From Phormidium ambiguum IAM M-71 (GTDB lineage Bacteria > Cyanobacteriota > Cyanobacteriia > Cyanobacteriales > Aerosakkonemataceae): 64,000 bases of DNA. Position 1 is the first letter of the stretch; each line of letters begins with the position of its first letter. Below are positions 3,064 to 56,865 of this stretch, piece after piece. The position numbers and the translations under genes were made by a program. The stretch spans positions 124,001-188,000 of the forward strand of contig NZ_MRCE01000002.1 in assembly GCF_001904725.1 (NCBI RefSeq), read 5' to 3'. Under the pieces are notes generated by a model, which saw only the letters and a program-made list of their open reading frames with translations, was not told where the DNA came from and made no database searches.

Positions 3064-3339
3064 ATGAAATATCATGCTCGGATTTATGTTACTCTGCGAC
3101 CTTCGGTTTTAGACCCTGCTGGTGTGGCGGTGCAGTCGGGACTTAAACACATGGGTTATGAAAATGTGGAACAGGTGCGGATTGGGAAATACATTGAATT
3201 AAATATTACTGCTGAGTCGGAAACTGCGGCGAAACAGCAGTTGGATGTAATTTGCGATCGCTTATTGGCGAATGTGGTTATCGAAAATTATCGCTTTGAG
3301 TTAACTGAAGTGTCTACTCCTGCGGAGGCGAAGGTATGA
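3064..3339 (+). CDS. purS: Phosphoribosylformylglycinamidine synthase subunit PurS
   Basis: A 91-residue Pur[43 protein letters not shown] is typical (conserved [10 protein letters not shown] and GY..V..VRxGKYIEL). PurS bridges PurL and PurQ in the ATP-dependent conversion of FGAR to FGAM, the fourth step of purine synthesis. A GAGGATAGG ribosome binding site precedes the ATG. The gene overlaps purQ by the 4-base ATGA, so the two are translationally coupled. purL is not in the window. Confidence 0.95.
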
Positions 3340-4007
3340 AGTTTGGGGTGTTAGTGTTTCCGGGTTCAAATTGCGATCGAGATGTTCTCTATGTGACTCG
3401 TGATTTGCTCAAGCAACCAACTAGAATGGTTTGGCATGAGGAAACTGATATTTCGGATTTAGATGTGGTGGTAGTTCCGGGCGGTTTCAGCTACGGGGAT
3501 TATTTGCGCTGTGGTGCGATCGCTCGTTTCTCCCCGGTAATGAAAGCGACAGTGGAACACGCAAACAAGGGCAAGTTAGTTTTAGGTATTTGCAATGGTT
3601 TTCAAGTGTTAACAGAGGCGGGTTTGTTACCTGGGGCGTTGGTGAGAAATCGGGATTTGCATTTTATTTGCGATCGCGTTCCTTTGCGCGTGGAACGCAC
3701 AGACACACCTTGGACAAACTCATATCAAACAGGAGAAGTAATTACTTTGCCGATCGCTCACGGTGAAGGAAATTACTACGCCGATGCTGATACTTTGGCA
3801 CGCTTGGAAGATAACGGTCAAGTTTTGTTCCGTTACGAAGGGGAAAATCCCAACGGTTCTTTAAATAATATTGCTGGTATTTGCAATGAGAAAGGCAATG
3901 TGCTAGGAATGATGCCCCACCCAGAACGAGCATCAGATCCAATCTTAGGCGGAACTGATGGGCTGAAGTTGTTTGAAGGCTTGTTGAAAGTAGCGGTAGG
4001 TGTATAA
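3336..4007 (+). CDS. purQ: Phosphoribosylformylglycinamidine synthase subunit PurQ (glutaminase)
   Basis: A 223-residue class I glutamine amidotransferase. The nucleophile elbow is [10 protein letters not shown] (catalytic Cys) and the His-Glu pair is in MMPHPERA near the C-terminus. The start [17 protein letters not shown] is characteristic of PurQ. It supplies ammonia to PurL for FGAM synthesis in the cytosol. Full length; the start overlaps the purS stop. Confidence 0.97.
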
Positions 4008-4038
4008 AGTTTAGAACTGACGCAGCCAATTAGAGGTT

Positions 4039-4092
4039 TAGGGGCGGATTTAGCCAAAATTTTTGGCTTTCACAAATAAAAACTCGCCCCTA
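4039..4092. repeat. REP-like palindromic element with TAGGGGCG / CGCCCCTA ends
   Basis: The element opens with TAGGGGCGGATTTAGCCAAA and closes with ACTCGCCCCTA. Its tips are inverted, and an inner dyad GCCAAAA/TTTTTGGC sits near the left. The same left end (one mismatch in 21) recurs in reverse orientation at 62270-62337. The GTAGGGGC tip is shared with the two repeats inside the neighbouring RAYT gene. It lies 86 bases beyond the end of that gene. Confidence 0.7.
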
Positions 4093-4178
4093 CAATTCGA
4101 CAATAGCACTGCCAATTACATTGTCAATACTTCCCGCGTCGCCACTTCTTTAAAATGATTCTAAATTCATAAAAACTA

Positions 4179-4961
4179 TTACCACTTTGATGGCACATTA
4201 GGATGTAATTGATCTTCTTCCCATTTCAAAGGATTAGTGTGAACGTATTCTCGGATGTGCTGAAGAGATTCCTCATTGCGGATGATATGTTCGTAATAAT
4301 TTCGTTGCCATAACCGTTTGTTGAATGGTTCCCACCCCAGATTTTTTACACCCCGAATATATTCATTCGTCGTCATTGTTTTAAACCATTGCACCATCGT
4401 CGGTAGGGGCGCACCCGTGTGTGCGCCCTGATCTGTGTGTGTACCATGAATCCTGGTGCGATCGCTATTATCGTCATTGGGACACACAGGGGGATTGGGG
4501 CAGACACATGGGGGGCAGACACATTGGTCTGCCCCTACGTCACCATCACGATCCGTTGATTTCGGTAGGGGCGCACCCGCGTGTGCGCCCTGATCCGTGT
4601 GCGCGCCCGGAACCCTGGTGCGATCGCTATTATCGTCATTGGGACACACAGGGGGATTGGGGCAGACACATTGGTCTGCCCCTACAGGGTTATTGGTGAT
4701 GACGATAATGCCATGAAAATGATTGGGCATAACTACAAATGCGTCAATGACAACCGATGGAAATTTATCAGGCAGCGCATTCCACCATCTATAAATCATT
4801 TCGCCTGCTGAATTTAGCTTTATCTGACCCATCTGAATTTCCCCCAACAAACAGGCGCGATTTTGCATACAAATAGTCACAAAATATAAACCAGATTGAG
4901 AATAGTCATATCCCTGCAACCGAATTGAACGGCGATGATGTTTGTTAGGGTCATATTTCAT
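4179..4961 (-). CDS. REP-associated tyrosine transposase (RAYT, Y1 transposase family)
   Basis: A 260-residue Y1_Tnp (IS200-like) family protein. The N-terminal part has RRSIRLQGYDYSQSGLYFVTI, and the HUH motif is HFH at residues 81-83 (VMPNHFHGIIVI). The catalytic-tyrosine helix is in LWQRNYYEHIIRNEESL, followed by HTNPLKW. These enzymes nick single-stranded palindromic REP sequences. Residues of about 93-187, between the HUH motif and the tyrosine helix, are two in-frame copies of a palindromic DNA repeat (VGADQCVCP..., GAHTDQGAH.GAPLP). Both catalytic parts are intact, so the gene may be active. There are no flanking insertion-sequence ends and no second transposase gene; it is a single-copy domesticated type. 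Confidence 0.9.
   Translation of the reverse strand: MKYDPNKHHRRSIRLQGYDYSQSGLYFVTICMQNRACLLGEIQMGQIKLNSAGEMIYRWWNALPDKFPSVVIDAFVVMPNHFHGIIVITNNPVGADQCVCPNPPVCPNDDNSDRTRVPGAHTDQGAHAGAPLPKSTDRDGDVGADQCVCPPCVCPNPPVCPNDDNSDRTRIHGTHTDQGAHTGAPLPTMVQWFKTMTTNEYIRGVKNLGWEPFNKRLWQRNYYEHIIRNEESLQHIREYVHTNPLKWEEDQLHPNVPSKW
4401..4538. repeat. Palindromic repeat inside the RAYT gene, copy 1
   Basis: A composite unit bounded by GTAGGGGCG (left) and TGCCCCTAC (right). It holds one GC-rich palindrome (GGGGCGCACCCGTGTGTGCGCCC) and a second (GGGGCAGACACATTGGTCTG..), and carries a 15-base internal duplication (GGGGCAGACACAT repeated) that copy 2 lacks. It starts 162 bases (54 codons) before copy 2, which keeps the reading frame. 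Confidence 0.85.
4563..4685. repeat. Palindromic repeat inside the RAYT gene, copy 2
   Basis: It has the same composite unit as copy 1 with a few substitutions (CGCGTGTGCG for CGTGTGTGCG) and without the 15-base duplication. Both copies include the shared TGCGATCGCTATTATCGTCA core with a HIP1 octamer. The right end GCCCCTAC coincides with the point where the RAYT linker begins (about residue 93). Confidence 0.85.
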
Positions 4962-5123
4962 ACAAATTACCTAGCCTACTTCAAAAGCTGCATGACAAAG
5001 AACTCGAAGGTTACTTGGTAATGCTTTAACGACACTGAATTTGGCCAACAAAAATAATCTGTCAGTGATTAAAAATAATTAGTCACTGTACAATTGGTTT
5101 AAAAATTGCTCTAAAAAATTCAA

Positions 5124-5210
5124 CGGAGAGGGTGGGATTTGAACCCACGGTGACATTGCTGCCACACTTGATTTCAAGTCAAGCGCAATCGACCACTCTG
5201 CCACCTCTCC
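5124..5210 (-). tRNA. tRNA-Ser (anticodon UGA)
   Basis: On the minus strand GGAGAGG pairs with CCTCTCC plus discriminator G. The anticodon arm is ACTTGA-CTTGAAA-TCAAGT with anticodon TGA. A long variable arm typical of serine tRNA follows, then the T arm with GGTTCAAATCC. About 87 nt; the CCA end is not encoded. It reads UCA and other UCN serine codons. Confidence 0.97.
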
Positions 5211-5240
5211 AGGGACATTTGTTTATCTTATCAGAAATAA

Positions 5241-56828: not shown

Positions 56829-56865
56829 TGTAGGGTGCGTTAACGCTAGTGTAACGCACCCTACA
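56829..56865. repeat. Dispersed palindrome TGTAGGGTGCGTTA / TAACGCACCCTACA
   Basis: A perfect 14-bp stem (56829-56842 and 56852-56865) with a 9-base loop lies between the convergent ends of chaB and the SRPBCC gene. It shares the GGTGCGTTA/CGCACC core with 10550-10576. Confidence 0.7.

What the first reader, a model, noticed from the sequence alone, without database searches (positions are those of the whole stretch)
4179..4961. RAYT gene whose own reading frame carries two in-frame REP-like palindromic repeats
The sequence shows two direct copies of a composite palindrome (4401-4538 and 4563-4685, period 162 bases = 54 codons), bounded by GTAGGGGC and GCCCCTAC tips, within the gene of a Y1-type transposase, between its HUH motif (residues 81-83) and its tyrosine helix. 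They are in frame and encode a C/P/H-rich linker of about 95 residues. RAYTs recognise REP palindromes. I recall homologues with VGAGLAPA-like linkers, which are translations of such tips. The inference is that the enzyme's linker recurrently accepts its own substrate repeats without loss of frame, giving a gene that encodes both enzyme and target. Period and 15-bp duplication keep the frame, which suggests selection against frameshift.
Basis: partly seen in the sequence, partly recalled or inferred. Interest (0 to 1): 0.62.

Follow-up and report, generated by a model that had tools for sequence, protein, structure and literature searches.

The report
Transposase gene carrying its own repeats
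A cyanobacterial transposase-like gene carries, inside its own coding sequence and without breaking it, two copies of the DNA repeat that such enzymes act on; this was published as a trait of this enzyme group in 2018, and here it is counted across more than 200 relatives.

Summary
Gene 4179-4961(-) encodes a 260-residue RAYT (TnpAREP). Between its HUH motif (H81, H83) and its tyrosine (Y239) lie two in-frame copies, 162 bases apart, of an inverted pair of GTAG-footed hairpins (a REPIN-like unit). They encode residues 93-187, a disordered linker. The phenomenon is published: Quentin et al. 2018 (PMC6006769) report that subclass 2.4 (RAYT group 4) genes carry REP insertions between HuH and Y without loss of frame. 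So this is a new member of a known kind.

Added here: among 123 intact RAYTs under 70% alike, 65 carry GTAG-footed hairpins in this linker (9.6/kb, against 0.10 and 0 in the core halves). In-gene hairpins match repeats flanking the same gene (24 of 45 perfect arms; 2.4 expected). Gain or loss recurred (at least 13 changes). Frame is held by purifying selection: the only three frameshifted homologues all bear repeat tips, and a fragment of a second copy in this genome has lost frame.

Unexpectedly, this genome holds almost no free copies: 4 hairpins in the gene, 2 in the fragment, 2 elsewhere. Most likely: own-type REP units insert into a permissive loop and survive only in frame.

The parts
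4179..4961 (-). RAYT / TnpAREP gene, 260 aa, HUH at residues 80-83, catalytic Tyr239
   Evidence: Pfam Y1_Tnp, NCBIfam REP_Tyr_transpos matched in two pieces, PDB 4er8 by sequence and by predicted fold, invariant H81 H83 Y239
4698..4961 (-). N-terminal half of the catalytic core, residues 1-88, ending in the HUH strand
   Evidence: pLDDT mostly above 90 from residue 30 on, strand 81-88
4565..4685 (-). in-gene REP pair, upstream copy in the gene
4660..4685 (-). GTAG-footed hairpin, type GGGCAGAC, upstream copy
4565..4590 (+). GTAG-footed hairpin, type GGGCGCAC, upstream copy
4403..4538 (-). in-gene REP pair, downstream copy in the gene, with an extra 15-base duplication
4513..4538 (-). GTAG-footed hairpin, type GGGCAGAC, downstream copy
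4403..4428 (+). GTAG-footed hairpin, type GGGCGCAC, downstream copy
4182..4400 (-). C-terminal half of the catalytic core: helix from residue 186 and tyrosine helix 230-249
   Evidence: model

Best explanation
This is a RAYT of the group 4 / subclass 2.4 type. A REP pair of the kind this enzyme lineage acts on entered the loop between the HUH strand and the next helix and was duplicated in tandem. The loop is disordered and outside the folded core, so any in-frame, stop-free insert is tolerated. Inserts that shift the frame kill the gene and are lost, so those that remain are in frame. Shown: the repeats, their site, the frame, recurrence across lineages, cognate match to flanking repeats in relatives, purifying selection on the core. 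Inferred: that the RAYT itself moved the repeats, and that retention is mostly passive.
For: Hairpin density 9.63/kb in the linker against 0.10 (N core) and 0 (C core); peaks also just upstream (2.90) and just downstream (3.88), falling to 0.3-0.4 beyond 300 bases. In-gene arms match own flanks: 24 of 45 perfect against 2.4 expected; no permutation of 5000 reached the observed mean. REP presence changes at least 13 times on the tree, 34 by parsimony. L064 lacks the insert that its close relatives L063 and L078 have at the same place. Linker pLDDT about 50 or lower, core mostly above 90. Core dN/dS about 0.03-0.36 in pairs where at least one gene bears a REP. All three homologues with halves in different frames carry REP tips. 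A fragment of a second RAYT in this genome (C1:285878-286060) keeps one REP pair but has lost frame. Same finding published for the subclass.
Against: Passive insertion predicts many copies elsewhere in the genome; here nearly all are in the gene or its fragment. The GTAG foot lies in phase 0 in 52 cases and in phase 1 in 4, although both are free of the TAG stop. Half of independent RAYTs carry such inserts, which is much for a tolerated accident.
Confidence: 0.72

Rival explanations
1. The in-gene repeats are kept by selection as a built-in target. The gene carries its cognate REP with it through horizontal transfer, so enzyme and substrate are never parted, and the in-gene copy seeds new REPs in each host.
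For: Cognate match to own flanks; recurrence at one site in 65 of 123 lineages; in this genome the gene and its fragment hold 6 of 8 copies, with two single hairpins elsewhere; many of the closest relatives lie in other phyla.
Against: About half of the independent relatives lack such inserts, and flanking repeats would serve the same end; no direct test of seeding.
Confidence: 0.15
2. The hairpins act in the mRNA or in the gene as an autoregulatory site: the RAYT binds its own message or its own single-stranded gene and limits its production.
For: Strong hairpins on the coding strand; REPs are reported to affect translation (cited in PMC6006769).
Against: Many relatives lack them; the number of units and their sequence vary. 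No expression data.
Confidence: 0.07
3. The linker is a protein domain in its own right (for example a Cys/His metal site), and the DNA repeats are a by-product of internal duplication.
For: The linker here is rich in C, P, H and D and is duplicated in frame.
Against: Linkers in relatives are unrelated in sequence or nearly absent, and disordered in the model, while the hairpin and GTAG foot recur with different translations.
Confidence: 0.04
4. Chance or assembly artefact.
For: None beyond the draft state of the genome (90 contigs).
Against: 152 hairpins found against 0.7 expected over 200 linkers; many independent genomes.
Confidence: 0.02

Closest known systems
TnpAREP subclass 2.4 / RAYT group 4 (Quentin et al. 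2018, PMC6006769)
   Same: HuH-Y1 core, variable insert between the HUH strand and the next helix, REPs inserted in the gene between HuH and Y without loss of frame, cyanobacterial members
   Different: Two tandem units here; no hairpin REP of the same kind found beside this gene in the flanks examined; very few copies elsewhere in the genome
GTAG-tagged REPs and REPs inside genes (Di Nocera 2013, PMC3733652)
   Same: GTAG foot plus GC-rich hairpin, inverted dimers, some within open reading frames
   Different: Here the host gene is the RAYT itself; the family is tiny in this genome
REPINs of Pseudomonas (Bertels and Rainey 2011, PMC3116915)
   Same: Two REPs in inverted orientation with a spacer, linked to a RAYT
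   Different: Not an abundant extragenic population here; the two hairpins of a unit have different stems
E. coli TnpAREP (PDB 4er8)
   Same: Catalytic fold, REP-hairpin enzyme
   Different: No REP-bearing linker

Membership tests
TnpAREP subclass 2.4 / RAYT group 4 | HuH motif NH[IFV]H and Y1 core | tested here: met
   NHFH 80-83, Y239 invariant; Y1_Tnp; 4er8 top fold match
TnpAREP subclass 2.4 / RAYT group 4 | WQ motif | tested here: met
   W218 Q219 invariant
TnpAREP subclass 2.4 / RAYT group 4 | Y motif YIxNNP | tested here: inconclusive
   YVHTNP here: Y, N and P kept, I to V and N to T; consensus from PMC6006769 Table 1
TnpAREP subclass 2.4 / RAYT group 4 | variable-length insert between beta3 and alphaC | tested here: met
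   strand 81-88, helix from 186, disorder between; length varies among relatives
TnpAREP subclass 2.4 / RAYT group 4 | REPs inserted in the gene between HuH and Y, frame kept | tested here: met
TnpAREP subclass 2.4 / RAYT group 4 | gene flanked by GTAG-footed REPs | tested here: inconclusive
   no flanking hairpin found by the detector at this locus; a longer repeat with a GCCCCTAC tip lies at 4033-4097 but is another family; flanks do carry REPs in 52 (300 bases upstream) and 45 (150 bases downstream) of 123 relatives
TnpAREP subclass 2.4 / RAYT group 4 | placement by the authors' own profile or clustering | not testable with these tools
   their models are not held
TnpAREP subclass 2.4 / RAYT group 4 | cleavage of the cognate REP | not testable with these tools
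   needs purified protein
REPIN population | two REPs in inverted orientation | tested here: met
REPIN population | many copies dispersed in the genome | tested here: not met
   strict pattern: 5 hits, 4 of them in this gene; looser pattern adds C39

The most novel reading that the evidence does not exclude
RAYTs of this group keep a copy of their own cognate REP inside the gene as a selected, built-in target. It is renewed as enzyme specificity drifts and carried along in horizontal transfer as the seed of new REP families; in this genome it persists almost only inside the gene.
Probability: 0.15. Interest if true: 0.65.

Novelty: new member of a known kind. Interest (0 to 1): 0.34.

Why it matters
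How REPs and RAYTs stay matched over evolution is open. A gene that holds both enzyme and target in one stretch of DNA gives a natural record of which REP each enzyme lineage uses. It also separates two cases that can be tested: tolerated self-insertion, or a kept seed. The cognate match across 45 independent loci makes the in-gene repeat a possible predictor of RAYT specificity.

Tried and rejected
A bare GTAGGGGC count was uninformative (189 against 139 for the reversed pattern). Correlating genome-wide REP counts with in-gene state was not pursued: the pattern counts mix several REP families. In one search the zero counts for the core were an artefact of the input list; one search replaces them. 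Rejected: linker as conserved protein domain; chance; frame-aware insertion (frameshifted REP-bearing relatives).

Full report
What is there. The minus-strand gene 4179-4961 encodes 260 residues. Pfam calls it Y1_Tnp. NCBIfam REP_Tyr_transpos matches it in two pieces and stays below its cut-off, because an insert splits the domain. The solved relative is the E. coli RAYT-REP complex 4er8, by sequence and by predicted fold. The insert holds two direct copies, 162 bases apart. Each copy is an inverted pair of two different GTAG-footed hairpins, GGGCAGAC type and GGGCGCAC type. Both copies fold better than all shuffles. One copy has an extra in-frame 15-base duplication.

Protein side. An AlphaFold model from 37 sequences has a confident core and a disordered linker from about residue 90 to 180, between strand 81-88 and the helix that starts at 186. 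H81, H83, W218, Q219 and Y239 are invariant.

Relatives. I collected 225 distinct homologous genes or gene pieces from the order, the family and 79 cross-phylum loci. None of the searches that gathered them used the linker as bait. 61 of 79 cross-phylum genes and 32 of 146 others carry a REP-type hairpin in the linker; this count allows GT[AG]G feet. Counting GTAG feet only, one intact gene per 70% cluster, 65 of 123 do. Density is 9.63/kb in the linker, 0.10 and 0 in the core halves, 2.90 in the 300 bases upstream, 3.88 in the 150 bases downstream, 0.3-0.4 further out. Shuffled linkers give 0.7 hairpins against 152 observed; other feet give 0 to 24 (GGTA, 24, can arise from GTAG tips preceded by G).

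Cognate match. In 45 independent loci with both kinds, 24 have an in-gene arm identical to a flanking arm of the same locus, against 2.4 expected when loci are permuted. For the six variable stem positions the figures are 24 and 1.0. Stems differ widely between clades (for example GTAGGGGCGGGGTC, GTAGGGACATGGC, GTAGAGACGTTGC), so this is not one old insert kept unchanged.

Recurrence and frame. The REP label needs 34 changes on the tree, at least 13 forced by well supported branches (FastTree, modest support). Close relatives differ by in-frame length changes, and L064 shows an empty site next to filled L063 and L078. In REP-bearing linkers the coding frame is open while one or both other frames have stops in 85 of 90. 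The GTAG foot is in phase 0 in 52, phase 1 in 4, never in the phase that would make TAG a stop. Core dN/dS in close pairs is mostly 0.1-0.27, though many dS values are near saturation. Three of 225 genes have halves in different frames and all three bear REP tips. So frame is kept because broken genes are lost, not because insertion respects it (inference).

This genome. A fragment of a second RAYT (C1:285878-286060) keeps a REP pair with its flanking codons but has lost frame. Outside the gene and that fragment only two single hairpins of the same types were found, C28:35713 and C39:55267. By contrast the genome's other RAYT at C4:133084 has no such linker and is flanked by GTAGGGTGCGTTA hairpins, for which the pattern scan gives 39 hits (at least one site is counted on both strands). 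So one RAYT has an expanded extragenic family, and the one in question keeps its repeats mainly in itself.

Known or new. Quentin et al. 2018 state that in subclass 2.4 REPs are inserted within tnpAREP genes, between HuH and Y, without disrupting the frame, and call this predominant and unique to the subclass. They assign RAYT group 4 of Bertels et al. to it. Di Nocera 2013 lists REPs inside genes generally. What I did not find in the texts read is the cognate-match test, the three-peak density profile and the near absence of free copies in one host. These are refinements. The verdict is a new member of a known kind.

Uncertain. Whether the RAYT moved the repeats itself, whether retention is passive, and why phase 0 is favoured.

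Noticed in passing
G000:C1:285878-286060 (L285:979-1161): Fragment of a second RAYT: HUH-strand codons, one REP pair and helix codons kept, in different frames, with a stop soon after.
   Followed up: yes
window 56830-56864: Hairpin of the GTAGGGTGCGTTA...TAACGCAC family, which flanks the genome's other RAYT (C4:133084) and has 39 pattern hits genome-wide.
   Followed up: partly
window 4033-4097: Intergenic imperfect palindrome with a GCCCCTAC tip just downstream of the RAYT; partial copies at seven other places, so a different dispersed repeat family.
   Followed up: partly
linkers of 123 independent RAYTs: GTAG foot read as GTA-G in 52 cases and in the other phase free of the TAG stop in only 4; stop avoidance at the foot alone does not explain this.
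   Followed up: no
L113:1630-1655 (gene-strand coordinates): A REP hairpin assigned to the N-terminal core region, at or beyond the edge of the usual linker; an identical one was also listed for its flank.
   Followed up: no
window 5123-5211: tRNA-Ser (tga) gene just upstream of the RAYT start; purS- and purQ-like genes lie on the other side (3064-4007).
   Followed up: no
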